Below are positions 3,180-45,670 of a stretch of 60,952 bases of DNA, in pieces. Source of the DNA: Geobacteraceae bacterium (GTDB lineage Bacteria > Desulfobacterota > Desulfuromonadia > Desulfuromonadales > BM103); the NCBI GenBank assembly GCA_024641085.1, contig JAHEDT010000013.1, forward strand, positions 1-60,952. The letters are read 5' to 3'. The notes below the pieces were generated by a model. It ran no database searches. It was not told the DNA's origin and was given only the letters and a program-made list of their open reading frames with translations. Every line of letters starts with the position of its first letter. Position 1 is the first letter of the stretch. The position numbers were made by a program, and so were the translations under genes.

Positions 3180-4253
3180 CTACTTGGACTGCATCTCCAC
3201 ACGACGGTTGAGCTTGCGGCCTTCCTTGGTGTTGTTGTCATACTTCGCCTGGGTCTCACCATAGCCTACGGCCTCCAGGCGAGTTTCCGGGATGCCGTTG
3301 CTGACCAGCCAGTTTTTCACCGAAGCGGCACGACGCTCGGAGAGTCCCTGATTGTAGTTCTCAGGACCGGTTGCATCGGTGTGACCGGACACCACGAAAT
3401 TGACGTTGGCATCCTCTTCCAGGATCATCTTGGCTTGTTCAAGGACGGGGATCATGTCGTCGGTGATCGCCGACTTGTCAAAACCGAACAGCAGGTTGAA
3501 GGTCACCACTTGCTTGGCAACCGGAACGGGTGCGGGCTTGGGAGCCGGAGCAGGCATGGGAGCAGGCACAGGAGCAGGAGCCGGAGGCTGAACCTCGTCA
3601 TAAAGCACGGCTTTGGCAAACTGGGCCATGGCGGCATCACTTGCGAGTGATTTGGCATCGGCCGCCACACTGCACCCTGAGAGTGCACGGATTCCGTCGA
3701 TGACCTGCTGCCCTTTGGGCGTGTCGGCATAGCTGACCACATGAATGCAGAGGTTGTCGCCGTGCTTGCTGTAAAGTGATTTTGCGGTCGCGACAGCATC
3801 GGGTCCTTCATTGGCTGCGCCATCGGTGTACATGATCAAGGCAGTCTTGCCAGGCAGCTGGCCGATGACAGAATCAATTTTCATCAGACCATCACCTATG
3901 TTGGTAAACTCGTTGAAAGGCGGCACGACACTGTTCGCCGCGGTGCTGAGCGATCCAGCCTTGTAGACAGCTGGAGTACTGACGACTTTATAGGTTGAGA
4001 ACATGGCAACGGAACTTTTATAGCCAAGTTCGGGAACGGCCTTGTCGAGGCGGTTGACGTCTTTGATCGCCTGGTCAAGTTTCTGATACCCGGCCATGAC
4101 ATTGGCCTGGGCCATCGAACCGGACTGGTCCATGAAGACGATGAAGTTATCGACCTTCTTGACCAGTTCCGCTGATGCGGACAGCGGGAGGGCAAGGCTC
4201 ATAGAAAGGACAATGGCCGTTGCGGCTAATGCAGCTTTACAATTTTTTTTCAT
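3180..4253 (-). CDS. VWA domain-OmpA domain fusion protein
   Basis: 357 residues, likely anchored to peptidoglycan and exposed to the periplasm or surface. Residues 1-28 are a signal peptide (ends LPLSASA). Residues about 35-215 form a von Willebrand A domain with the metal site DQSGS and a later YTDGAAN. Residues about 226-250 are a Pro-Ala-rich linker. Residues about 255-357 are an OmpA C-terminal domain (FGFDKSAI, VSGHTDATG, LSERRAASVKNWL, NRRVEMQ), the peptidoglycan-binding type. The ATG at 4253 has GGAG eight bases upstream; the GTG at 4262 overlaps that site and is rejected. A terminator follows at 3082-3124. The ligand of the VWA part is unknown. Confidence 0.85.
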   Translation of the reverse strand: MKKNCKAALAATAIVLSMSLALPLSASAELVKKVDNFIVFMDQSGSMAQANVMAGYQKLDQAIKDVNRLDKAVPELGYKSSVAMFSTYKVVSTPAVYKAGSLSTAANSVVPPFNEFTNIGDGLMKIDSVIGQLPGKTALIMYTDGAANEGPDAVATAKSLYSKHGDNLCIHVVSYADTPKGQQVIDGIRALSGCSVAADAKSLASDAAMAQFAKAVLYDEVQPPAPAPVPAPMPAPAPKPAPVPVAKQVVTFNLLFGFDKSAITDDMIPVLEQAKMILEEDANVNFVVSGHTDATGPENYNQGLSERRAASVKNWLVSNGIPETRLEAVGYGETQAKYDNNTKEGRKLNRRVEMQSK

Positions 4254-4713
4254 CGTGATCACTCCTCTTTCCTTTTCTTTTTACTCAAGTTAGATCCTCG
4301 AGGAATCATTAGGTTTTAATATGAATGCGCAAATGTTTGCGGCGGCCAAATATATGACTTATTTAGTCACGCTTTGTCAATAGAATAATTACACTCTAAA
4401 ATTTAATTTTTGTTGTTATGATTTTGATATGTTGGATGACATATGAAGAGTATGCCACTGGGCAGTTGAGAACCGGATGACCTCACGCATGAAGTGTCTT
4501 AGAAGGTGTGCCACAGAAATTGGCCGAAGTCGGCAGTTCGAGTCAAGGCCCATTCCTGACTTCCCTGATTTTTTAGGTACATAGACTCGTATATTGTAAT
4601 GGCAGGCTTGCACTTATTTATAAAGCTTGGTTGCAGCATGGTTGAATGTTGATAAAAAGTTTCCTGAAATTTCCTTAGCTAATAAAGAAAACCGAGTGGC
4701 CATAATCAAAAGG
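4254..4713. other. intergenic region, no gene seen
   Basis: AT-rich at 4280-4440, which should hold the promoter of the minus-strand VWA-OmpA gene. No coding sequence is supported in 4440-4713. A short tRNA-like T-loop sequence near 4535 does not fold into a tRNA. GGCCATAA at 4698-4705 faces TTATGACGGCC at 4714-4724, a possible terminator stem overlapping the end of the TRAP gene. Confidence 0.5.
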
Positions 4714-5247
4714 TTATGACGGCCTGTCAGTGCCAGCCCTTTTCCTTTGCTGACAGAAGGCATCAACCTCCTGCCAGATATTCTTAATCGAGTAGACAAC
4801 CATGATCAGTCCAGAAATCGGCATACACACGTAGAGATAACGCCGCGACACGTTGAATACCGGCGTCCAGTCGCGGGCCAGCGTGGTCAAACGAAGAGCT
4901 TCGTAGAAAAAGATCGCAACAAAGAGCAGCGAAACGATCTCAATGAAGATGGAAAAAAGGTGGCCGGCGGCAGTCCCTTTAATTTTCTCATGGATCCATT
5001 CCAGTCGGAAATGGTCGTTGCGTGCCCAAAGTGCCGCCGCTCCCAAAAAAACCATCCAGGCGAACATCCACTCGACCACCTCGTCGAACCAGTAAAATGC
5101 CGCGACCGGCACGTAGCGGACAAACACGTTGCCAGTCAGCAGGAGCAGCAGCAGAATGAAGCAGCATACGCATATCGACCGCAGGGTGTAGACCAGGACA
5201 CGGTCCAGGGTCGAAAACATAGCGGCTATTTTTACGGACTGACTCAC
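4714..5247 (-). CDS. TRAP transporter small permease subunit (DctQ family)
   Basis: 177 residues with four hydrophobic segments (about residues 20-40, 48-68, 88-108 and 130-150), the DctQ layout. The motif WFDEVVEWMFAWMVFLGAA matches the conserved E..R/W...W..FLG region after helix 2, and ARNDHFRLEWI matches the A...H....D/E region. It pairs with DctM to move substrate with Na+ or H+. The GTG at 5247 is chosen because GAGGTG lies about seven bases upstream; a GTG at 5256 overlaps that site. The start follows the DctM stop (5258) within about ten bases. Substrate unknown. Confidence 0.82.
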   Translation of the reverse strand: MSQSVKIAAMFSTLDRVLVYTLRSICVCCFILLLLLLTGNVFVRYVPVAAFYWFDEVVEWMFAWMVFLGAAALWARNDHFRLEWIHEKIKGTAAGHLFSIFIEIVSLLFVAIFFYEALRLTTLARDWTPVFNVSRRYLYVCMPISGLIMVVYSIKNIWQEVDAFCQQRKRAGTDRPS

Positions 5248-5257
5248 AATTGACACC

Positions 5258-6553
5258 TCACTCGGCTATTTTGCCCATGACCAGGTCTGGCAGCCACAAG
5301 GAAATGGCAGGGATAAAGGCAACGGCCAGCAGCACGAAAAAGATGCCGAGTAGATAGGGCCACATCTCCCGGCTCAACTCGCCAATGGAGAGCTTCGTAA
5401 TACTGGAAACGGCATACAGGCACATGCCCACCGGCGGGGTCAGGAGGCCGATCATCGAAGCCAGGGTCATGACGACTCCGAACTGCACCGGATCGATTGC
5501 GTAATGGATAATGATCTTTTGAAAGATCGGGATGGTAATAAGTAAAACGGCGATCCCTTCGAGAAAACACCCGAAAATAATTAGAACCGCAATGATGATC
5601 AGCATGACAATTGACGGGTTGTCACTCAGCGTTGTCACCCCCGCAATCACTTCCACCGGGATCCGTTGCAGGATCAGCAGCCATCCGAAGAAACCAGCGG
5701 CGGCGATGATAAACATGATTCGCACCGTATGGGTGAGCGTGTCCCAGAAAATGGCGGGCAGATCTCGAAAGCGAATACTGCGGTAAACAACAAGGCCGAG
5801 AAAAAGAGCATAGAGACAGGCGATCACTGAGGCTTCGGTCGGGGTGAACTGGCCGCTCAGAATGCCGCCGACAATAAGCACCGGGGTCATCAAAGGCAAG
5901 AAAGCGGCTTTGCCGCTGAGAATCAGTTCTTTCAACGGGGCCCGCGAATCTTTTGGGTAGTTACGTTTCTTCGACACGAAGTAAACGGTGATCATCAGTG
6001 CCAGCCCCATCAGTACTCCCGGTATGACACCGGCCAGGAACAGCCGGCTTACCGAAACCTCGGTAAGATAGCCATAGATGACCAGGGGAATACTCGGTGG
6101 AATGACCGGTCCGATGGTCGATGATGCCGCCGTGATCGCCGCCGAGAATCGCCAGTCGTAACCATTGTCCTTCATGGCTTTCATTTCGATCATGCCGAGC
6201 CCCGCCGCGTCGGCAACTGCCGCCCCGGACATCCCTGAAAATATCATGCTGGCGATCACGTTGACCTGTCCAAGGCCACCCCAGATATGACCGACCAGCG
6301 CTCTGGCAAAACGGAAGATCCGTTCGGTGATCCCCCCTGTGTTCATCAGGTTTCCGGCCAGGATAAAAAAAGGAATGGCAAGCAGGGTAAAGGAGGTGGT
6401 CGAGGCGTACATCCTCTGCGCCACCATGGTCAGGATATCGGCTTGGCCCATGATTAAAAAGGCTGCCACAGCCGTCAGGCCCATGCTGACGGCGACGGGA
6501 ACCCCTAGCAGAATCAGGGCCACCAGTGATGTAAAGAGGATCAGGGTGGTCAT
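5258..6553 (-). CDS. TRAP transporter large permease subunit (DctM family)
   Basis: 431 residues, about 12 hydrophobic segments. DctM signatures include LAIPFFILAGNLMNTGGITERI, MSGAAVADAAGLGMIEMKAM, ASSTIGPVIPPSIPLVIYG and LTPPVGMCLYAV. It forms the transport channel of the tripartite ATP-independent periplasmic system. The ATG at 6553 gives the usual MTTLILFTSL start; an upstream TTG at 6589 would add 12 polar residues and is less likely. It is the second gene of a P-M-Q operon (7640 to 4714), whereas P-Q-M is the commoner order. A stem-loop at 6590-6631 separates it from the binding-protein gene. Confidence 0.88.
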   Translation of the reverse strand: MTTLILFTSLVALILLGVPVAVSMGLTAVAAFLIMGQADILTMVAQRMYASTTSFTLLAIPFFILAGNLMNTGGITERIFRFARALVGHIWGGLGQVNVIASMIFSGMSGAAVADAAGLGMIEMKAMKDNGYDWRFSAAITAASSTIGPVIPPSIPLVIYGYLTEVSVSRLFLAGVIPGVLMGLALMITVYFVSKKRNYPKDSRAPLKELILSGKAAFLPLMTPVLIVGGILSGQFTPTEASVIACLYALFLGLVVYRSIRFRDLPAIFWDTLTHTVRIMFIIAAAGFFGWLLILQRIPVEVIAGVTTLSDNPSIVMLIIIAVLIIFGCFLEGIAVLLITIPIFQKIIIHYAIDPVQFGVVMTLASMIGLLTPPVGMCLYAVSSITKLSIGELSREMWPYLLGIFFVLLAVAFIPAISLWLPDLVMGKIAE

Positions 6554-6589
6554 GCTGGCTCGGTTATCATCGTCGGGTACATTTTGCAA

Positions 6590-6631
6590 CGCCGCTCACA
6601 CCGTTGCCGGGGCAGCGGTTAATGAGCGGCG
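6590..6631 (-). other. intercistronic stem-loop after dctP
   Basis: CGCCGCTCA (6590-6598) and TGAGCGGCG (6623-6631) form a perfect 9-bp stem, and the interior can pair further (CCG-t-TGCC / GGCA-g-CGG). No T-run follows, so it is more likely an mRNA-stabilising or attenuating structure than a full terminator. Confidence 0.6.
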
Positions 6632-6656
6632 TGCTTTCCTGCAAACGGCACCCTGT

Positions 6657-7640
6657 TTATTTTGCCTGTTCGACAATCTTCAGGAAATAATCAAGGTTTT
6701 CTGCACCGACAGACGCTTTCATGCGTTCGTAAGCAGGGCCCATTTTGGCTTTAAAAAGAGCAACATTCGGCCTGGTGACCGCCATGCCCAGTCCCTCGAG
6801 CTTCTTGATCTGGTCACCTTCTGCATTGCGCAGGGTCGCACGCATGAAATCGCCGGCCTTTTTGCTCTCTTCCTTGACGATCTTCTGCTGTTCAGGGGTC
6901 AGCTTACTCCAGGTCTTCTTGCTCATGACATGGACCATGGAGTTGTAGGTATGTCCGGTCATGGCGAGATATTTCTGGGTCTCGTAAATTTTGAACGCGT
7001 AGATCACGCTGACCGGGTTTTCCTGGCCGTCGACCACACCCTGCTTGAGCGCCATGGGCAATTCCGAGAACTGGATGGTCTGAACGGTCGCTCCAAGGGC
7101 TTCCATCGCCGCCTGGTTGGGTAATTCGGGCGGGGTCCTTATTTTCAGACCCTTGACGTCATCAGGGGTATTGATTGGCCGCACGCTGTTGGTCAGGTTT
7201 CGGAACCCCCATTCCCAATTGGAAAGAAAGATCAAGCCGGCATCATCGAGATCTTTGCCTGCCCAGGCAATAAACGGGCCGTCGAGCACCCGGTAGGCGT
7301 GGTCATAACCATCAAAGGCGAAAGGCAGCATGACACAGCCGAACTTCTTGGAATACTTGGCCAGCTGTCCCTGGGTCGGCAGGCTCATGTCAATGACGCC
7401 GAGAACATTCTGCTCAAGAACCTCCGGTGGGTTGCCAAGCTCGTTGTTGGGGTAAATTTCAACCTTTATCTCACCGTTGGTTCTTTTGGAGACACCCTCA
7501 GCAAACATTTGTGCGGCTTTGTTGCCGGCGTGATCAGCATTGGCGTAATGACCCAGTTTGAGGACCATGGCGGCATGCGCACTCATCCCCATGCTCAACC
7601 CCAGCAGCAGACAACACAACGCAACGAACGTCTTTTTCAT
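6657..7640 (-). CDS. TRAP transporter substrate-binding protein (DctP family)
   Basis: 327 residues. Signal peptide at 1-23 (MKKTFVALCCLLLGLSMGMS, then AHAA). The mature part has the DctP fold signatures GHYANADHAGNKAAQMFAEG, KVEIYPNNELG, LKIRTPPELPNQAAMEALGA and QGVVDGQENPV, including the conserved Arg that usually contacts a substrate carboxylate. The ATG at 7638-7640 follows GAGGAAGATC; the upstream extension to 7787 is rejected. It is the first gene of the P-M-Q operon. The substrate is probably an organic acid, but nothing nearby identifies it. Confidence 0.88.
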   Translation of the reverse strand: MKKTFVALCCLLLGLSMGMSAHAAMVLKLGHYANADHAGNKAAQMFAEGVSKRTNGEIKVEIYPNNELGNPPEVLEQNVLGVIDMSLPTQGQLAKYSKKFGCVMLPFAFDGYDHAYRVLDGPFIAWAGKDLDDAGLIFLSNWEWGFRNLTNSVRPINTPDDVKGLKIRTPPELPNQAAMEALGATVQTIQFSELPMALKQGVVDGQENPVSVIYAFKIYETQKYLAMTGHTYNSMVHVMSKKTWSKLTPEQQKIVKEESKKAGDFMRATLRNAEGDQIKKLEGLGMAVTRPNVALFKAKMGPAYERMKASVGAENLDYFLKIVEQAK

Positions 7641-8218
7641 GATCTTCCTCCCTTCTTCTTGGTGATAGTTGAGCAACGACTTCGACAGTCTTTCGTGCGA
7701 CTGTTCCAACGACACATCAACGTTAATCCCCAAAATGGCCAAGTGATGCAAATAAATAAAATTCCATAATATAAAACTACGTTTCAAAATAATGTCAAGC
7801 GGCCTTAAGAATTTTTTGAGAATCTCACTTGAGAAGTGTGCGGATTAATTTTATAAATATCTATTATTAAATAAATAAATTATATATAAAAGATTTTCTT
7901 GCACTTTTTAATTTCTGCTACTTACTATTAAATACATGCAGAAACATAAATTGTTTGTTTCACAATACAAAACTTTTTGCCATGATTTCGATATTATTAA
8001 TCTTGGACTCTAGGAGCGGGAGGTCTGTCATTTTCGAGAGATTTTGTGATTTGCTATAAGCTCTCCTCATGCTTTTGTTACTCAGAAATTCAAAAATTAG
8101 GGCGATGCATTAAAAATGCTGTAATCTAAAAAAACCCCCGGACATTGAATCGGGGGCTTTTCGTTTGATGGATGTTAATTTATTTGGGTTACGATGATCA
8201 ACAAGTGCCATTACGTGG
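7641..8218. other. AT-rich intergenic region
   Basis: No supported ORF. 7650-7800 should contain the promoter of the dctP operon, but I could not settle on boxes. It is very AT-rich at 7840-7990. The right part contains the terminator-type repeat at 8119-8165. Confidence 0.5.
8119..8165 (-). terminator. terminator of the dapB-like gene; dispersed repeat copy 3 of 3
   Basis: CCCCCG (8135-8140) and CGGGGG (8151-8156) form the stem. On the minus strand it is followed by a run of eight T, fitting termination after the gene ending at 8219. The plus strand also has CTTTTCG. The left flank CTGTAATCTAA matches copies at 768 and 3014. Confidence 0.75.
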
Positions 8219-9019
8219 CTACAGATCAAGCACAGAATCCAAGCCACGGTGGACACCAATCAGCGTCGAGACCTTGCGGATAGCCAGCAGCGCGCCATCA
8301 ACATAAGGGCGTGCACTGCTTCCTGAATCATGGCGAATTGTCAGTTTTTGATCTTGCATCCCGAAAATGACCTCGGCACTGATCACGTAGCCAGGCAGCC
8401 GAATGGAGTGAACCTGTGACCCCAACAAGGTGGCCCCACGAGCATCCCGCCGGCCTACTGTGCGATCGACCGGGATCGTAGGCTCTGGGCAGCGTATTTT
8501 CGACAATTTAGTCGCTAGTTCACGGGCGGTTCCGCTTGGGGCATCGATTTTATCATCATGCGCGTAGTCAATAATCTCCCACTGCGGAATAAGTTTGGCT
8601 GCCGTTTCGGCAAACTTCTGCAGCAATACGACTGTTAATGCAAAGTTGCCACAAGCAAGGACTCCCCTGTTTTTCTCGCGGGCAAATACATCGATCTCAG
8701 TGAAATCGTCCTCTGTGAGGCCTGAAGTCCCCACCACCACATGTGCGCCTCTGTCGAGCGCAGTCAGAATGTTGGCCTTGGCACTGTCTGGCTTCGTGTA
8801 TTCGACGAAGACGTCACAGGGGCATGTAAGAGCCTCTTCGGCTGAACAATAAATGGGAGTTTCAAGGCTTGGCTCACCGAGCACCTCACCCAGGATCTGC
8901 CCGGCGTGCTGACGCGAAACAGCAGCGACAAGAGTGAGGTCCGGAACCTTCCCGATTGAACGTGAAAGTTCGGACCCGGCCCAACCGGTCGCGCCCGCCA
9001 CACATACTTTGATGGCCAT
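8219..9019 (-). CDS. dapB: dihydrodipicolinate reductase-like protein (variant DapB)
   Basis: 266 residues, the usual DapB length. The N-terminus has the Rossmann motif VAGATGWAGSEL (GxxGxxG), and the catalytic and substrate region reads YAHDDKIDAPSGTARELA. DapB reduces hydroxy-tetrahydrodipicolinate in lysine and diaminopimelate synthesis. Compared with the E. coli region EAHHRHKVDAPSGTA, the Lys and the DAPSGT substrate loop are kept, but the first His of the pair, the proposed acid-base residue, aligns with Ala. The GWAG motif also differs from the usual GRMG. The gene is alone, not in a dapA-dapB-dapL cluster, so it may be a paralogue with an altered substrate. Start supported by AAAAGGTAAGC before ATG. 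Confidence 0.72.
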   Translation of the reverse strand: MAIKVCVAGATGWAGSELSRSIGKVPDLTLVAAVSRQHAGQILGEVLGEPSLETPIYCSAEEALTCPCDVFVEYTKPDSAKANILTALDRGAHVVVGTSGLTEDDFTEIDVFAREKNRGVLACGNFALTVVLLQKFAETAAKLIPQWEIIDYAHDDKIDAPSGTARELATKLSKIRCPEPTIPVDRTVGRRDARGATLLGSQVHSIRLPGYVISAEVIFGMQDQKLTIRHDSGSSARPYVDGALLAIRKVSTLIGVHRGLDSVLDL

Positions 9020-9323
9020 ATTGCTTACCTTTTAATAGCGATTCTGTGATCAATGGTGTCAAGAACCAGTCATTCGCAAGTGTCCTTGGAAGTTATATCA
9101 GATTTCTCTCGCAGGGTTTAATGTCAAATATCAGTAATTCTCGAATCCACCGACATACAGAAAAAAAGCCCCACAGTCAGGAGAGTGACTGTGGGGCAAC
9201 GGGTTCTATGGGTTTTTCTTTAGGAGGGTAGAACATGAAGAAGTATGTTCTGGTTAATATCTTACTGTTTTAGTCAGATATGTCAAGCAGAAAAATATTA
9301 ACGATAAAAAAGCTGCCTGCGCA
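9020..9323. other. intergenic region with terminator and a 12-residue orphan ORF
   Basis: Holds the promoter region of the dapB-like gene (minus), a strong terminator at 9161-9197, and a short plus-strand ORF at 9235-9273 with a strong ribosome site. Nothing else is seen. Confidence 0.6.
9161..9197 (-). terminator. terminator after the aminotransferase gene
   Basis: GCCCCACAGTCA (9168-9179) and TGACTGTGGGGC (9186-9197) form a perfect 12-bp stem with a 6-base loop. On the minus strand a run of seven T follows, so it ends the TAXI-TRAP/aminotransferase operon, 127 bases after the last stop. Confidence 0.8.
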
Positions 9324-10616
9324 CTAACCTTTCACCCAATCGACCATTCTCTCCAACGCCGTGATCACCTTGTCACAGTTGCGATGCATGAATTCCTCGC
9401 CTATGAGCTGGTCGTTCGGCACCTGCTCGGCAGCGGCCAGAGCCCGGGAGCCATCGAAATCGACATAGGCGAGCCGGGCGGTCAACTCATGCTCCGGACG
9501 GCCGAAGCAGGTTCCAGGCAAGATGGCGACTCCGGTCTCCTCGAGCATCCGGGTGCAGAGTTGGGTGCTGCTGGCGATGCCCCGGGCAGAAAGCTGGGCA
9601 CGCAACGGGCTGAAATCGGGAAAAGCGTAAAAACCGCCATCAAGGGGGGCCATGTTCAGGCCGAGCCCCGAGAACATGGTATGGACACGGTTACCAAGCG
9701 CTTTGAGCACCCTGCGCGACTGCCAGAGGTAGCGCTCGATCGTCACTCCGCCGTTGAAGGCGCGCACTGCGGCATACTGGATCGGGGCGCTGGTGGACGT
9801 AAAGGTCTCTGACGCGACCGTCGCCATCCCCTTGACCAGCCATTCAAGCTCCTTCGGTGCCGCAAAGATGCCGAGACGCCAACCGCCGGCGCCGCACCAC
9901 TTGCTCATGCCGCCACTGATGATCGTTCCTTCAGGGTAGTGGCGGGCGATCGAGCGATGGCCACCGTCGAACTGCAGCTCACCATAAATTTCATCGGAGA
10001 GCATGATGATCTTGTACTTGCGGGCAACAGCAGCCAGCGCCTTGAGTTGCTCATCACTGTAACTGTAACCGGTCGGGTTGTTCGGGTAGTTGAGAATGAC
10101 GATGCGCGGCTTGCTCGGGTCGTCGGCGCAGACCCGTTCCAGTTCATCGGCAGTGAGCAGCCATTTGTTCTCGGCGCTGGTCGGCACCCACCGCACATGG
10201 CGGCCGATGATATGTGCCTGGGGAGCGTAGGAGACCCAACTCGGGGTCGGGATAACCAGGTCGCCGTAGTAGACCAGTTGCAGGACGAACATCAACTCCT
10301 TGGAACCGGGGCCAACCAGCACGTGCTGCGGCAGGAAAGCGAGGTTCTGAGTTCTCTGGAAGTAATTGACCACGGCCTGCTGAAGGGCAGGCAGGCCACG
10401 CACCGGCAGATAATCCTTCTGATGTGCGTTGACCTTCAGTTCTTCAACCACGACTTGCGGAACCGGGAACGGCGACTGGCCCAGGCCGAGCTTGTAAACC
10501 TGCTTACCCGCGGCGATCATCTCATTGGACAGTTCATTGATCTGCAACGTCGCCGATAGCGGCAGGCCGCGCACATTGAGGTTGAGGTGCTTTTCGTGAA
10601 TACCGTTGGGGGTCAT
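9324..10616 (-). CDS. class I/II pyridoxal-phosphate aminotransferase
   Basis: 430 residues, fold-type I. The cofactor Lys is in SGGMSKWCGAGGWRLG, NYPNNPTGYSYS carries the conserved Asn, LSDEIYGELQF the Asp/Tyr pair, and the C-terminal part AYVDFDG the region where the substrate-binding Arg usually lies (LARLAYV). The family transfers amino groups between an amino acid and a 2-oxo acid in the cytoplasm. Aspartate or aromatic-type activity is possible but not determined. A SD sequence AAGGAGG sits just before two adjacent ATGs; the second (10616) has the better spacing. It is the last gene of an operon with a TAXI-TRAP transporter and a UspA protein, suggesting that the imported compound is an amino acid or oxo acid. 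Confidence 0.82.
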   Translation of the reverse strand: MTPNGIHEKHLNLNVRGLPLSATLQINELSNEMIAAGKQVYKLGLGQSPFPVPQVVVEELKVNAHQKDYLPVRGLPALQQAVVNYFQRTQNLAFLPQHVLVGPGSKELMFVLQLVYYGDLVIPTPSWVSYAPQAHIIGRHVRWVPTSAENKWLLTADELERVCADDPSKPRIVILNYPNNPTGYSYSDEQLKALAAVARKYKIIMLSDEIYGELQFDGGHRSIARHYPEGTIISGGMSKWCGAGGWRLGIFAAPKELEWLVKGMATVASETFTSTSAPIQYAAVRAFNGGVTIERYLWQSRRVLKALGNRVHTMFSGLGLNMAPLDGGFYAFPDFSPLRAQLSARGIASSTQLCTRMLEETGVAILPGTCFGRPEHELTARLAYVDFDGSRALAAAEQVPNDQLIGEEFMHRNCDKVITALERMVDWVKG

Positions 10617-10726
10617 CATGCCTCCTTGCAGTTAGCCCGGGACCTACCAGGAGCAACGGCGCCCGTTGCAGTGGATGGAACGATTATGTGGGCCGGCACG
10701 GCAGATAGCCGACCACAGCGCAGCCA

Positions 10727-11221
10727 TTAATCATTCCCGTCCAACGGCACGACCAGCATCGGCCGTTGGCTCTTGCGCAGGACCTTTTCGGCGACACTGC
10801 CGAGGAACGCGTACTTGAGCGCCCCCTTGCCATGACTGCCCAACACGATCATGTCCACGTCGAGAGCGTCGGAGTGCTGCAGGATGTGGGCGACCGGGTT
10901 GCCGTAATGGACCTCGATATCGGCGATCCTTTCAGCATCCTCCGGATGATCGATGAGCTCCTCATTGGCGAAACGGTGCAGCCGGCGGCGAATCTCATCC
11001 TTGATTTCCGCTTTGTGTTCAAGCTCTAAACCAGCCAGTTTCTCCTCACCCATCACCGTTGCAACGTAATTCATGGTCGACGAATCCACCTCGGGGAGGA
11101 TGTGCAGCAGGGTGATTTTGGCATTGTAGCGCCTGGCCAGGCTGATGGCGTGCTTGAATGCATGCGCAGAGTTGACCGAGAGATCTGTTGCATACAGGAT
11201 TTTCTTGTACTCCGGAATCAT
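10727..11221 (-). CDS. universal stress protein (UspA family)
   Basis: 164 residues. ILYATDLS at residues 7-14 is the usual beta-1 start, and the C-terminal motif GSHGKGALKYAFLGSVAEKV fits the ATP-binding G-2x-G-9x-G(S/T) pattern. ATG at 11221 follows GAGGAGAACGTC. The gene begins 10 bases after the stop of the fused TRAP permease and precedes the aminotransferase. UspA proteins are repeatedly found inside TRAP operons (TeaD in the ectoine system regulates its transporter), so a nucleotide-dependent role in transporter control is likely here. Confidence 0.88.
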   Translation of the reverse strand: MIPEYKKILYATDLSVNSAHAFKHAISLARRYNAKITLLHILPEVDSSTMNYVATVMGEEKLAGLELEHKAEIKDEIRRRLHRFANEELIDHPEDAERIADIEVHYGNPVAHILQHSDALDVDMIVLGSHGKGALKYAFLGSVAEKVLRKSQRPMLVVPLDGND

Positions 11222-11231
11222 GACGTTCTCC

Positions 11232-13313
11232 TCACGCTGCCGACGGGGCAGCGGTTCTGGTGCGCATCTTCTGCAGCAGGTAGAGGGCGACGAACAGGCC
11301 TGCACCAAGCAGATAGGCGAGATGGTGCTCCTCGACCCCGAGCAGCCCGGCAAAGAAATAAGGGCGGAACATGAAGCCGCAGACCACGAACAGGCCGATC
11401 AGCTCATACCAGCGGTTTCTGATGATGAACCAGTTCTGAGTTGCAGCGGCAAAGGCACAGGTGCCGATACAGGTCATGATGAAGATGAAGATCGCCTCGA
11501 AGAAGTTGTTGATACCGACCAGCAGGATGTCGGTATTGAAGATAAACATAAAAGGCAGTGCCGCGGTACGGATATCGTAAAGGAAGCCCTGCACCCCGGT
11601 CGGGATCGGATCGCTCTTGGCAATGGCCGCTGCCGCGTAGGCTGCCAAACCGACCGGCGGCGTGTCATCGGCGAGGATGCCGAAGTAGAAGCAGTAGAGG
11701 TGTGCGGCGATCAAGGGCACGGCAAAGCCGTTGAGATCGGCCAGGGTCACCAGCGCCGGCGCTGTCAGGCTGGCCATGACGATATAGTTGGCGGTGGTCG
11801 GCAGGCCCATGCCCAGGATCAGGCTGCAGATCGCAACGATACCGAGCATCATGTAGAGGTTGCCCATGCTCAAGGTGTCGATGATATCGGTCACCAGGCC
11901 GCCGAGGCCCATGGTCACAACACCCACGACAATCCCGGCCGCTGCGGTGGCAACACCGACGCTGACCATGTTGCGGGCACCGGCCACCATCCCTTCGTAG
12001 ATGTCGACAATGCCCTTCCAGAACCCCTGGCCGATCGAGGTGTTTTCTTTCCTGGCGCGGACCGCGTGCTGAAATAGCATCAACAGCAGCAGCAGCATGG
12101 TCGCCCGGAAGGCGGCCATATCGGGAGAATGCCGGGGAATGATCAGTTCGTAGAGCAGGAAGAGGATCGGCACCAGGTAGTGAAACCCGTTGAAAAGGAC
12201 CTGGAAAAAAATCGGCAGCTCAGCCTTGGGCAGCCCGCGCATACCCAGCTTGGAGGCCTCGATGTGAGTCAGGAAAAAGAGCGCCACATAAGAGGCGAAA
12301 GCCGGAATCGCCGCAGCCTTGCAGACTTCCAGGTACGGCAGATTGACGTACTCGGCGATAATGAAGGCGGCCGCCCCCATGACCGGCGGCATCAACTGGC
12401 CGTTGGTGGAAACCGCCACCTCGATCGCCGCGGCCTTCTTGGCAGGATAGCCGACCTTTTTCATGAGCGGAATGGTGAAGGTGCCAGTGGTCACGACATT
12501 GGCAATCGAGGATCCGGAGATCAGGCCGGTCAGGCCGGAAGAGAGCACGGCGGCCTTGGCCGGGCCGCCCTTGTAGCGCCCCAGCAGACTCATGGCCAGA
12601 TCGATGAAGAAGCGCCCGGCGCCGGCCTTCTCGAGCAGTGCGCCGAACAGCACGTAGAGAAAGACGATCTTGGCCGACACGTAGATCGGGACGCCGAAAA
12701 TCCCCTCGGTGGTCAACGAGATCTGGCCGATGAAGCGATTGATGCTGACCCCCTTGAAAGCCAGGAAATCGGGCATATAGGGGCCGAAGAACGCATAGAG
12801 CGTAAAGAAGATGCCGATGATCGACAGGGCCGGCCCGACCACGCGGCGCGCGGCCTCCCAGAGGAACAGGATCAGCAGCGTGCCGAGGATCTTGTCGCGG
12901 GCATTAAGCAGACCCACACGACTGGCAATGCCCTCGAAATCGATGACGATATAGAGCGCCAGGAAAGCGGCGAAGAGTGCCAGGACCAGGTCCATGACAG
13001 GGATGCGGTCAGTCGCCGAGAGCCAACGCAGTCCCGGAATGTTGATTGGGCGCTTGAAGGTCGGGAAGGAAACATAGATCAGGAAGAGTGCGAACGCCAG
13101 GTGAATCGAGCGCACATAGGTTGAGTCGAGCAGCAGCCAGCTCGAAAGAGAGAGCTGGAACAGTGACCAGCTCAGGGCCACAATCGGCACCAGGAAGCGT
13201 TGCCAACCCGAGACGTGGCGTAGCCCCATCTCCTCTTCTTCGACCATGCGCCGAGCCTTCTCGAGGCCCTCATCACTTTCATCGACCTGCAGCTTAACTT
13301 GCTCTTTGCTCAT
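11232..13313 (-). CDS. TRAP transporter fused permease, TAXI-associated (DctQ-DctM fusion)
   Basis: 693 residues with about 16-18 hydrophobic segments. The N-terminal part (about 35-210) corresponds to a DctQ-like unit. The rest is DctM-like, with GLISGSSIANVVTTGTFTIP, STNGQLMPPVMGAAAFIIAE, MGLPTTANYIVMASLTAPAL and DDTPPVGLAAYAAAAIAKSD, typical of TAXI-system fused permeases. The cytoplasmic N-terminus (1-35) is acidic. ATG at 13313 follows GAGGAG. It lies between the TAXI binding-protein gene and uspA on one transcript. Substrate unknown; some TAXI systems transport glutamate or other dicarboxylates. Confidence 0.9.
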   Translation of the reverse strand: MSKEQVKLQVDESDEGLEKARRMVEEEEMGLRHVSGWQRFLVPIVALSWSLFQLSLSSWLLLDSTYVRSIHLAFALFLIYVSFPTFKRPINIPGLRWLSATDRIPVMDLVLALFAAFLALYIVIDFEGIASRVGLLNARDKILGTLLILFLWEAARRVVGPALSIIGIFFTLYAFFGPYMPDFLAFKGVSINRFIGQISLTTEGIFGVPIYVSAKIVFLYVLFGALLEKAGAGRFFIDLAMSLLGRYKGGPAKAAVLSSGLTGLISGSSIANVVTTGTFTIPLMKKVGYPAKKAAAIEVAVSTNGQLMPPVMGAAAFIIAEYVNLPYLEVCKAAAIPAFASYVALFFLTHIEASKLGMRGLPKAELPIFFQVLFNGFHYLVPILFLLYELIIPRHSPDMAAFRATMLLLLLMLFQHAVRARKENTSIGQGFWKGIVDIYEGMVAGARNMVSVGVATAAAGIVVGVVTMGLGGLVTDIIDTLSMGNLYMMLGIVAICSLILGMGLPTTANYIVMASLTAPALVTLADLNGFAVPLIAAHLYCFYFGILADDTPPVGLAAYAAAAIAKSDPIPTGVQGFLYDIRTAALPFMFIFNTDILLVGINNFFEAIFIFIMTCIGTCAFAAATQNWFIIRNRWYELIGLFVVCGFMFRPYFFAGLLGVEEHHLAYLLGAGLFVALYLLQKMRTRTAAPSAA

Positions 13314-19921: not shown

Positions 19922-20339
19922 ATGTGGTTGGAGAAAACCGTAAGCCGGGTTCTGTTCCCTGCAGCGGTTGCCCCCTGCCGGGCGACGATCATTCCTCTAG
20001 GACCGCCGTTGCCGACGGCCTCAAGCGGCCTGACCCGGGAGTTTCGGACGGGCCGTCCTCAAACACCCCCCTATTTGGCCTTGCTCCGGATGGGGTTTAC
20101 CGAGCTGCCGGCGTCACCGCCGGCACTGGTGAGCTCTTACCTCACCCTTTCACCCTTACCCGCCGAAGCTGCCACATCGTGGCAGCGAAGGAGGGCGGTC
20201 TTCTCTCTGTGGCACTTTCCCTGGGGTCGCCCCCGGTCCCCGTTAAGGACCATCCTGCCCTGTGGAGCCCGGACTTTCCTCCCCCCACTTTCGCACGAGG
20301 CTCCAGCGGGCGGCGATCGTCTGGTCGTCTCCAACCACG
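19922..20339 (-). ncRNA. rnpB: RNase P RNA, bacterial type A
   Basis: The minus strand contains the conserved 5' elements GACCAGACGATCGCCGC and GGGGAGGAAAGTCCGGGCTC, the internal CAGGGCAGGATGG and the 3' element AGAACCCGGCTTACGG. Ends are set by helix P1: GTGGTTGGAGA at the 5' side pairs with TCTCCAACCAC at the 3' side. Length is about 415 bases. This ribozyme cuts the 5' leader from tRNA precursors. It lies about 16 bases after the stop of the zinc-ribbon gene on the same strand and has its own terminator. Confidence 0.95.
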
Positions 20340-22376: not shown

Positions 22377-22452
22377 TGGTGGGCCCACCAGGGTTCGAAC
22401 CTGGGACCGACCGGTTATGAGCCGGTGGCTCTTCCAACTGAGCTATGGGCCC
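22377..22452 (-). tRNA. tRNA with CAT anticodon (Met elongator, or Ile2)
   Basis: Complete cloverleaf of 76 bases on the minus strand: acceptor GGGCCCA/TGGGCCC, D stem GCTC/GAGC, anticodon stem ACCGG/CCGGT with loop CTCATAA, T arm CCAGG-TTCGAAC-CCTGG, discriminator A and encoded CCA. The lack of an unpaired first position excludes the initiator. A CAT anticodon cannot by itself separate elongator tRNA-Met from lysidine-modified tRNA-Ile2. Confidence 0.95.
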
Positions 22453-43413: not shown

Positions 43414-43544
43414 TCTTTATCAAGAGTGGTGGAGGGACAGGCCCTTTGAAGCCACAGCAACCGACCTGTCGAAGCTTTATGCAAAGGCAGGTGCCAGGTG
43501 CTAAATCCAACCTGCCGACCAAGCGTCAGCGGGGGAGATGAGGA
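43414..43544 (+). promoter_or_regulatory. SAM-I (S-box) riboswitch
   Basis: Conserved blocks CAAGAGTGGTGGAGGGACAG, GCCCTTTGAAGCCACAGCAA (consensus GCCC.aTGAAgCCcgGCAACC) and GGTGCTAAATCC. Helix P1 pairs TCTTTATC (43414-43421) with GATGAGGA (43537-43544). Binding S-adenosylmethionine favours the downstream terminator and turns off metX. Confidence 0.93.
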
Positions 43545-44754: not shown

Positions 44755-44776
44755 CAGGACTGGATCACCATAACGA

Positions 44777-44807
44777 CAGGGCAATAGATGGCCAATCTGT
44801 TGCCCTG
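44777..44807 (+). terminator. metX terminator; left copy of a 31-bp palindrome
   Basis: CAGGGCAA (44777-44784) pairs with TTGCCCTG (44800-44807), with extra internal pairing. It is the inverted near-copy (30 of 31 bases) of 45614-45644. A weak T/C-rich stretch follows. Confidence 0.65.
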
Positions 44808-44895
44808 ATGACTTTCCCCTTTGCTTGTGATTTTTCCTTTTCACACTTCGCGCCACCTGTCACGTGCTACCCACCACGTGCTACCCGATGTTAAA

Positions 44896-44992
44896 ACCGG
44901 CGGGTCGCGTCCCGTCAGACGCCATACTTTTGCCCGGCAGCAAAAGTATGCAAAAGTGCCGTCACCTCGCGGTGGGCATGTCTTGCGCCGTC
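44896..44992. repeat. left arm of a large imperfect inverted repeat
   Basis: Starts ACCGGCGGGTCGCGTCCCG and includes a hairpin CATACTTTTGC/GCAAAAGTATG, then GGGCATGTCTTGCG. The same order of elements appears inverted at 45402-45505. Confidence 0.7.
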
Positions 44993-45304
44993 ATTCTACG
45001 GATCAATCCACAACACAGCCAACGACTACGTCATTTCCATTAGCAGCACTACGGGGCCCTATTTTACCGGGCCACCGGGGTCTCCGAACGTAATGTCGCC
45101 AATGAGGTCAACCTTTCAGCCAATATCAAGGTACGCAGACCGAGGAACCAAAAACTGTCTGAATCGACCTTTTAATCAGGTTTTGACTGGTTTCCCTCGC
45201 GCCTTGAACCTCATACCTCCGGTACTAAATTTGTGAAATGTGTAGACCTGACCCCACTCACTCGTCGCATGTAGCGTGTCCCGGGTTCTATCGTGCAACC
45301 CGCA

Positions 45305-45347
45305 GACCACCCGGGGGCCAAACAGGAGGGCCCCCGCCAGGGTGGTC
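45305..45347. repeat. GC-rich hairpin
   Basis: GACCACCC (45305-45312) pairs with GGGTGGTC (45340-45347), and inside GGGGGCC with GGCCCCC. No T-run. Confidence 0.6.
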
Positions 45348-45401
45348 GAAGCGTAGACGGTAAGTTCTCCTGCCGTGCGGGCGCTCGGTGCCAATCGATT
45401 A

Positions 45402-45505
45402 CGCGTAAGACATGCCAAGCGCCGCGTCAGGCCCTTTTCTGCGTACTCTTTTGGGCCAGCAAAAGAGTACGGCGTCCGGCGGGACGCGACCCGCCGATTT
45501 TGGTT
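45402..45505. repeat. right arm of the large imperfect inverted repeat
   Basis: Read on the minus strand it gives CGGCGGGTCGCGTCCCG, a hairpin GTACTCTTTTG/CAAAAGAGTAC and GGCATGTCTTACGCG, matching the left arm at 44896-44992. Confidence 0.7.
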
Positions 45506-45613
45506 TGGTTGAATTTTATTTGCTTGTGGTCTATCCGGCACCGCAACTGCAGGTGGACTCGAAAGCTGTTTTGGGAAGGTCAGGTCAACCTTAACGAGCA
45601 TCACCAAATAAAA

Positions 45614-45644
45614 CAGGGCAACAGATTGGCCATCTGTTGCCCTG
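45614..45644 (-). terminator. lut operon terminator; right copy of the 31-bp palindrome
   Basis: CAGGGCAACAGAT (45614-45626) and ATCTGTTGCCCTG (45632-45644) form a perfect 13-bp stem. On the minus strand TTTTATTTGG follows, as expected after the gene ending at 45671. Confidence 0.85.
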
Positions 45645-45670
45645 TCGATATGGTCATGCTTGCGGTCTGA

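What the first reader, a model, noticed from the sequence alone, without database searches (positions are those of the whole stretch)
44777..45644. 868-base gene-free element bounded by inverted 31-bp palindromes
44777-44807 and 45614-45644 are inverted near-copies (30 of 31 bases) and each is itself a hairpin. Between them lie two arms of a large imperfect inverted repeat (44896-44992, 45402-45505), each with its own hairpin, and a GC-rich hairpin at 45305-45347. No transposase is present. It could be a non-autonomous mobile element, a relic, or a structured RNA region that grew between two convergent operons.
Basis: seen in the sequence. Interest (0 to 1): 0.5.

Follow-up and report, generated by a model that had tools for sequence, protein, structure and literature searches.

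The report
Mobile noncoding hairpin element between genes
The gene-free stretch is one copy of a scattered, gene-less element whose two mirror-image ends fold into the same knotted hairpins; copies differ in place between related species and tend to sit at the ends of genes, and look-alikes occur in other groups of bacteria.

Summary
Confirmed and explained. The inverted palindromes, two inverted arms and GC-rich hairpin are real. The region is one of 11 copies found with both arms in its own genome, besides fragments; it matches in 47 of 58 genomes of its order. Each arm is a module: hairpin H1, then H2 whose loop pairs with flanking bases (a pseudoknot). Compensatory changes exceed shuffled and slid controls. 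In congeners, sites filled in one species are empty, reduced to one hairpin, or internally deleted in others; two sites have exchanged flanks; some copies form tandem arrays. Copies favour gene 3' ends. Overlapping ORFs have no Pfam match; RAYT transposase genes do not track the element. I read it as a non-autonomous mobile element of nested inverted repeats; how it jumps is inferred. The arm design recurs in Beta- and Gammaproteobacteria, perhaps in a fusobacterium, where it meets Rfam families TwoAYGGAY and Bp1_684. Boldest reading: one widespread, undescribed class of structured mobile element.

The parts
44764..44807 (.). left outer inverted repeat; 44777-44807 is a self-complementary terminator-like hairpin just after metX
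   Evidence: 93% complementary to 45614-45657; 20 sites of this palindrome in the genome, 0 of the reversed control
44893..44990 (+). left arm module: H1 44899-44916, H2 44923-44950, H2 loop 44935-44939 pairing with 44957-44961 (pseudoknot), H3 about 44963-44974
45055..45073 (+). inner GC-rich hairpin 1 (GGCCC/GGGCC), conserved among own-genome copies
45215..45256 (+). separately dispersed short motif inside the element (...TGTAGACCTGACCCC...); missing from copy C78a
45305..45347 (+). inner GC-rich hairpin 2
45403..45501 (+). right arm module, inverted relative to the left arm: pseudoknot strand 45430-45434 pairing with H2' loop 45453-45457, H2' 45442-45471, H1' 45478-45495
45614..45657 (.). 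right outer inverted repeat; hairpin just after the lut gene, which lies on the minus strand

Best explanation
This is a non-autonomous mobile element with no gene of its own, built of nested inverted repeats. SHOWN: two inverted ~100-bp arms, each a chain of hairpins with a loop-to-flank pseudoknot, enclose about 400 bp with two GC-rich hairpins; a part of the copies carry a further pair of inverted terminator-like palindromes outside the arms; copies are dispersed, polymorphic between species, more often at gene 3' ends than expected, sometimes in tandem arrays, and have exchanged flanks with each other. INFERRED: a host or mobile-element nuclease acting in trans recognises the folded arms in single-stranded or cruciform DNA (or an RNA copy) and moves the unit into the short spaces behind genes, often at terminators, where insertion does little harm and the outer palindromes can serve as terminators. 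Loss appears to occur by deletion between short repeats at the base of the hairpins, leaving a single hairpin or an emptied pair.
For: Own genome: 103 BLAST matches, counting the query itself, arm-to-arm cross matches and short fragments; 11 copies with both arms. Relatives: matches in 47 of 58 genomes. Polymorphism: at one G005 site the flanks adjoin in G020 and G014, each with a single hairpin. At seven more G005 sites (7 of the 13; sequences read by eye): G020 lacks it at E2 and E4 and has a deleted core at E11 and E3; G014 has one hairpin at E9, E11, E13; no such hairpin or arm seen in G012, G016, G017 at E11 or in G015, G018 at E9; filled also in G021 (E6, E11) and G019 (E6). Structure: R arm 97 cells changed on both sides against 23.3 in shuffles and at most 23 when slid; L arm 80 against 28.1 and at most 18. 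Context: 24 convergent, 23 tandem, 4 divergent of 51 classified clusters (20 more unclassified), against 19, 54, 20 of 93 control gene pairs. Flanks of E2 and E3 exchanged in G014 with arm matches between. No Pfam match in four ORFs overlapping the region.
Against: No transposase has been tied to it: none among the Pfam matches of 20 ORFs near arrays (20 of 35 listed; 8 of the 20 had no match at all), and RAYT genes do not track it. No simple target duplication was seen; at E4 and E2 the empty site differs by more than the element. Polymorphism could partly be loss, not gain. Many G genomes are fragmented and break at the repeats, and several rows were left unresolved. The strand fold test is inconclusive. 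On the L arm two of five measures, the counts of pairs and of pair types, are within shuffles (69 and 85 of 500).
Confidence: 0.78

Rival explanations
1. A multicopy structured noncoding RNA gene family: the arms and inner hairpins act as RNA, and the copies are paralogous RNA genes or 3'-end RNA modules. This does not exclude mobility.
For: Pseudoknots with compensatory changes; in other bacteria similar arms lie beside or under Rfam families TwoAYGGAY and Bp1_684 (above threshold in L249, L250, L252; below it in L244, L253). Khoo et al. 2012 (PMC3521395; passages and section 17 read) discuss Bp1_Cand684 among their Burkholderia sRNAs and suggest a trans-acting role.
Against: Variable position, tandem arrays, emptied and single-hairpin sites and flank exchange are mobile-element behaviour; neither strand is clearly favoured (minus strand more stable in 50 of 67, copies not independent); no Rfam family reaches threshold in the element of the window or in the 12 relatives' loci searched with it.
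Confidence: 0.3
2. A large BIME/REPIN-type repeat moved by a RAYT (Y1) transposase.
For: Inverted palindromic modules at gene 3' ends and mosaic composition, as in BIMEs (recalled); the own genome has 2 Y1-transposase matches.
Against: In the 40 genomes shared: both 25, element match only 7, RAYT only 7, neither 1: no association, though some genomes are incomplete and some element matches weak. The arms are ~100 bp with a pseudoknot, not 20-40-bp REPs.
Confidence: 0.12
3. Spread and homogenisation by recombination only: old intergenic repeats that exchange sequence by gene conversion, with no transposition.
For: Mosaic units in arrays and flank exchange in G014.
Against: G012, G016, G017 (E11) and G015, G018 (E9) show an ordinary terminator-like hairpin and no arm or palindrome of this type at sites filled in G005 (by eye), which needs insertion or complete loss in several lineages.
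Confidence: 0.2
4. Ordinary: two unrelated terminators of two convergent genes with filler between.
For: The palindromes do look like terminators; single such hairpins follow metX in G005, G008, G009, G014 and G015.
Against: The core recurs at many other sites; palindromes of one locus match each other better as inverted copies in 13 of 14 loci.
Confidence: 0.02

Closest known systems
BIMEs / REPINs (REP-based mosaic intergenic repeats)
   Same: noncoding, inverted palindromic modules, gene 3' ends, mosaic composition (family traits recalled)
   Different: 400-650 bp with ~100-bp pseudoknotted arms; no association with RAYT genes over 40 genomes
MITEs
   Same: short, gene-free, inverted ends, many copies, polymorphic sites
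   Different: no parent transposase found in the little that was searched and no simple target duplication; nested arms with pseudoknots
Rfam RF01731 TwoAYGGAY (typed Cis-reg by Rfam; in Weinberg et al. 2010, PMC2864571, two passages seen, a table row lists it as probably an RNA and probably not cis-regulatory)
   Same: on a Pseudoalteromonas replicon 5 of 5 matches (3 over the cut-off) lie within about 400 bp of an arm-type hairpin; at one place two inverted copies lie between two arms
   Different: no match in the window or the relatives' loci searched; covers the interior, not the arms; 3 of the 5 matches are one cluster
Rfam RF02421 Bp1_684 (Burkholderia sRNA; Khoo et al. 2012, PMC3521395, passages and section 17 read)
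   Same: overlaps the outer part of arms in Burkholderia and Caballeronia
   Different: no match in the window; the two Burkholderia arms with the best scores lack the pseudoknot
Geobacter 'multicopy nucleotide sequences', some in pairs on opposite strands (Aklujkar et al. 2009, PMC2700814, sections 14 and 22 read; the 2010 and 2012 companion papers, passages; supplements with the sequences not available)
   Same: dispersed intergenic repeats, several of them palindromic, in Geobacter and Pelobacter
   Different: the consensus repeats in the captions (e.g. GTTGCTYN, TCTCCGTS, CCYTC) do not obviously describe these arms; as I could not see the alignments, the element may be among them

Membership tests
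MITE | short, noncoding, inverted terminal repeats, many copies | tested here: met
MITE | target-site duplication of fixed length | tested here: inconclusive
   flank overlap of 35 bp (G020) and 52 bp (G014) is the hairpin itself; no simple duplication at E2, E4
MITE | ends shared with an autonomous transposon | tested here: inconclusive
   no transposase among Pfam matches of 20 ORFs near arrays; whole genomes were screened for Y1 transposases only
BIME/REPIN | 20-40-bp REP hairpins with GTAG/CGTC tag | not tested
   arms are ~100 bp; the tag was not scanned for; definition from title and abstract start of PMC3733652 (listing)
BIME/REPIN | repeat presence tracks RAYT genes across genomes | tested here: not met
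   7 of 32 genomes with an element match have no RAYT match, 7 of 32 RAYT genomes have no element match; four of the RAYT-less carriers are 59-87% complete, and the own genome has 2 RAYTs
Rfam TwoAYGGAY RF01731 | match at or above gathering score | tested here: not met
   window and 12 relatives' loci; met on the Pseudoalteromonas replicon only
Rfam Bp1_684 RF02421 | match at or above gathering score | tested here: not met
   window and 12 relatives' loci; met in L249 and L252 and L250
intrinsic terminator | GC-rich hairpin followed by a T-rich run | tested here: met
   outer palindromes only: hairpins, T-rich inner flanks read; termination itself not tested

The most novel reading that the evidence does not exclude
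The Desulfuromonadales-type element, the TwoAYGGAY RNA of Gammaproteobacteria and the Bp1_684 sRNA of Burkholderia are parts of one ancient, widespread class of gene-less mobile element. It is defined by mirror-image arms (H1, then H2 with a loop-to-flank pseudoknot) about 400-650 bp apart, settles behind genes, and uses folded single-stranded DNA or RNA ends as its signature for an unidentified trans-acting enzyme.
Probability: 0.45. Interest if true: 0.85.

Novelty: new variant of a known kind. Interest (0 to 1): 0.62.

Why it matters
It gives a position, structure and mobility record to a repeat that annotation leaves blank, offers a possible common home for two Rfam families whose function I know of no account of (recalled), and makes a testable question of what enzyme moves pseudoknotted, gene-less elements. 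Such elements can hand out terminators, break assemblies (many own-genome fragments lie at contig ends) and drive rearrangement.

Tried and rejected
RAYT as driver: no association. Rfam: only sub-threshold hits to unrelated families in the region; none above threshold in the element. Plasmid and phage collections with the core: no match. Empty site at metX-lut: among ten metX loci, lut follows metX only in the own genome; in G001 the contig ends inside the element, and in the other eight no lut end lies in the ~1.5 kb held, so the window's own site has no clean empty counterpart. Strand test by folding: inconclusive. G.T against A.C counts: 59 against 29 on the + strand, judged inconclusive because 13 of the G.T cells look like an alignment artefact. 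First version of the descriptor scan was too strict and missed the window's own arms (mended); the mended one still misses many true arms (for example most of those in L084) and gave 1 hit in six shuffles of one foreign 50-kb piece. Papers: no title or abstract listed by searches describes this element; that covers only the held library, and the supplements of the Geobacter papers could not be seen.

Full report
WHAT IS THERE. Direct reading and repeat search give outer inverted repeats 44764-44807/45614-45657 (44 nt, 93%), arms 44893-44946/45448-45501 (78%) and 44969-44988/45403-45422 (85%). The palindrome pattern occurs twice in the window and never in 100 shuffles.

IT IS DISPERSED. The own genome (3.5 Mb, 151 contigs, completeness 99.5) gives 103 BLAST matches, which include the query itself, left-right cross matches, palindromes and short fragments. 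Eleven copies have both arms, counting the window's; one of them (C78a) has a divergent right arm; further fragments lie at many contig ends. The complete copies share the arm-to-arm core. The outer palindrome (up to 3 mismatches) has 20 sites in the genome and the reversed control has none; I count 13 beside an arm or in an arm-bearing locus, 6 at contig ends and 1 elsewhere. In the 14 loci of three genomes where both palindromes were listed, the pair fits better as inverted copies in 13, three of these by a single base; C142 is the exception. Of 58 genomes of the same order (the own included) 47 match the region; the rows listed are nearly all arm matches, but the list is cut and a few genomes have one weak match only. 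With a left-arm model 6 of 297 genomes drawn from the phylum match at E 1e-4, five of them of the same order, the own included (stricter filters, and the number of order members in the draw was not told).

STRUCTURE. In 45 left arms and 43 right arms the same plan holds: H1, H2, and an H2 loop that pairs with bases downstream (left) or upstream (right, mirrored). Counting named pairs: right arm 96.4% of cells paired, 97 cells changed on both sides (shuffled mean 23.3, none of 500 as high; slid versions at most 23), pseudoknot helix 4 of 5 pairs with two-sided changes. Left arm 92.6%, 80 cells (28.1; none of 500; slid at most 18), but the numbers of pairs and of pair types alone are within shuffles (69 and 85 of 500), and the two outer pseudoknot pairs hold in 70% of cells only. 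The structure was read off these sequences, the copies are related, and H3 competes with the pseudoknot in the left arm. A simple descriptor (stem plus 5-nt pseudoknot) finds just the two arms in the 61-kb window and none in five shuffled windows, but it misses many true arms elsewhere. Whether DNA or RNA folds is open: the minus strand is more stable in 50 of 67 elements, many of them related.

MOBILITY. In congeners of G005: at the site of L090 the flanks adjoin in G020 and G014, each with a single hairpin, while G005 has the element between two inverted hairpins. I then took seven of 13 G005 sites and read the relatives' sequences by eye. G020 has neither element nor such hairpin at E2 and E4; at E2 another hairpin of terminator type stands. 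At E11 it keeps both hairpins but has lost the core, and at E3 the core is deleted. G014 has single hairpins at E9, E11, E13 and a reduced copy at E6. G012, G016, G017 (E11) and G015, G018 (E9) have other terminator-like hairpins and nothing of this type. G021 is filled at E6 and E11, G019 at E6. Other rows (contig ends, larger gaps) were not resolved. In G014 the left flank of E3 is joined to the right flank of E2, and the left of E2 to the right of E3, with arm matches between, which I read as recombination between copies. Eleven tandem-array units of G025 (period about 508) are mosaics, 70-91% alike. At the window's own site the relative G001 also has the element; G005, G008, G009, G014 and G015 have a single hairpin of this type after metX; G012 and G025 show none and G007 a different one. 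I cannot tell there whether the hairpin was an older terminator or is a scar.

CONTEXT. Of 71 arm clusters, 51 could be classed: 24 convergent, 23 tandem, 4 divergent. The same crude gene caller on 93 neighbouring pairs without arms gave 19, 54 and 20 (Fisher p 0.001 for convergent; 0.01 against the 43 pairs with gaps of 100 bp or more). Clusters are not independent.

BEYOND THE ORDER. Distant BLAST with a divergent own-genome copy led to a Variovorax megaplasmid element of the same plan, between convergent genes, with nothing annotated inside. From there arms were found in Burkholderiales, Chitinibacteraceae and Pasteurella, and similar hairpins in Pseudoalteromonas and Ilyobacter. Of 15 such arms in the loci that I fetched, 9 have a loop-to-flank match of at least 5 nt (shuffled mean 3.0; 1 of 2000 shuffles as high), 4 only a 4-nt match, and 2 Burkholderia arms none; in Pseudoalteromonas the 5-nt match is on the side opposite to the expected one. 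Mirror-paired arms with H2 starts 470-630 bp apart are seen in Variovorax (1) and Caballeronia (4). Rfam Bp1_684 overlaps the outer arm in Burkholderia and Caballeronia, above threshold in L249, L250 and L252, below it in L244 and L253. On the Pseudoalteromonas replicon 5 TwoAYGGAY matches were found, 3 over the cut-off; all 5 lie within about 400 bp of an arm-type hairpin, but 3 of them are one cluster; the second record searched, Ilyobacter, has none. Common descent of these with the window's element is not proven; the stems are low in complexity.

MECHANISM. No candidate enzyme emerged, though the search was narrow. I commit to trans mobilisation through the folded arms, with loss by deletion at the hairpin bases, as the likeliest account; the first step is inferred only.

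Noticed in passing
43414-43544 (+): SAM riboswitch upstream of metX.
   Followed up: no
45215-45256: A short motif (...TGTAGACCTGACCCC...) is dispersed on its own in the genome and sits inside most complete element copies; copy C78a lacks it, like an empty site.
   Followed up: partly
G014 contigs C56 and C99 (L237, L238): Flanks of two G005 element sites are exchanged, with arm matches between: rearrangement between copies.
   Followed up: partly
L147 (G048:C4), 4036-13272: Cluster of 15 arms in both orientations, with a hipA-like gene between and a flagellin gene beside.
   Followed up: partly
L058 (own genome C26), 958-1555: A divergent element inside its own pair of palindromes: a right arm by BLAST followed by a left-type hairpin read by eye, the reverse of the usual order.
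   Followed up: partly
L164 (G005:C3): The gene left of this G005 element reads like the lut 3' end (by eye), beside a different neighbour.
   Followed up: no
19926-20332 (-) and 22380-22452 (-): RNase P RNA and a tRNA gene.
   Followed up: no
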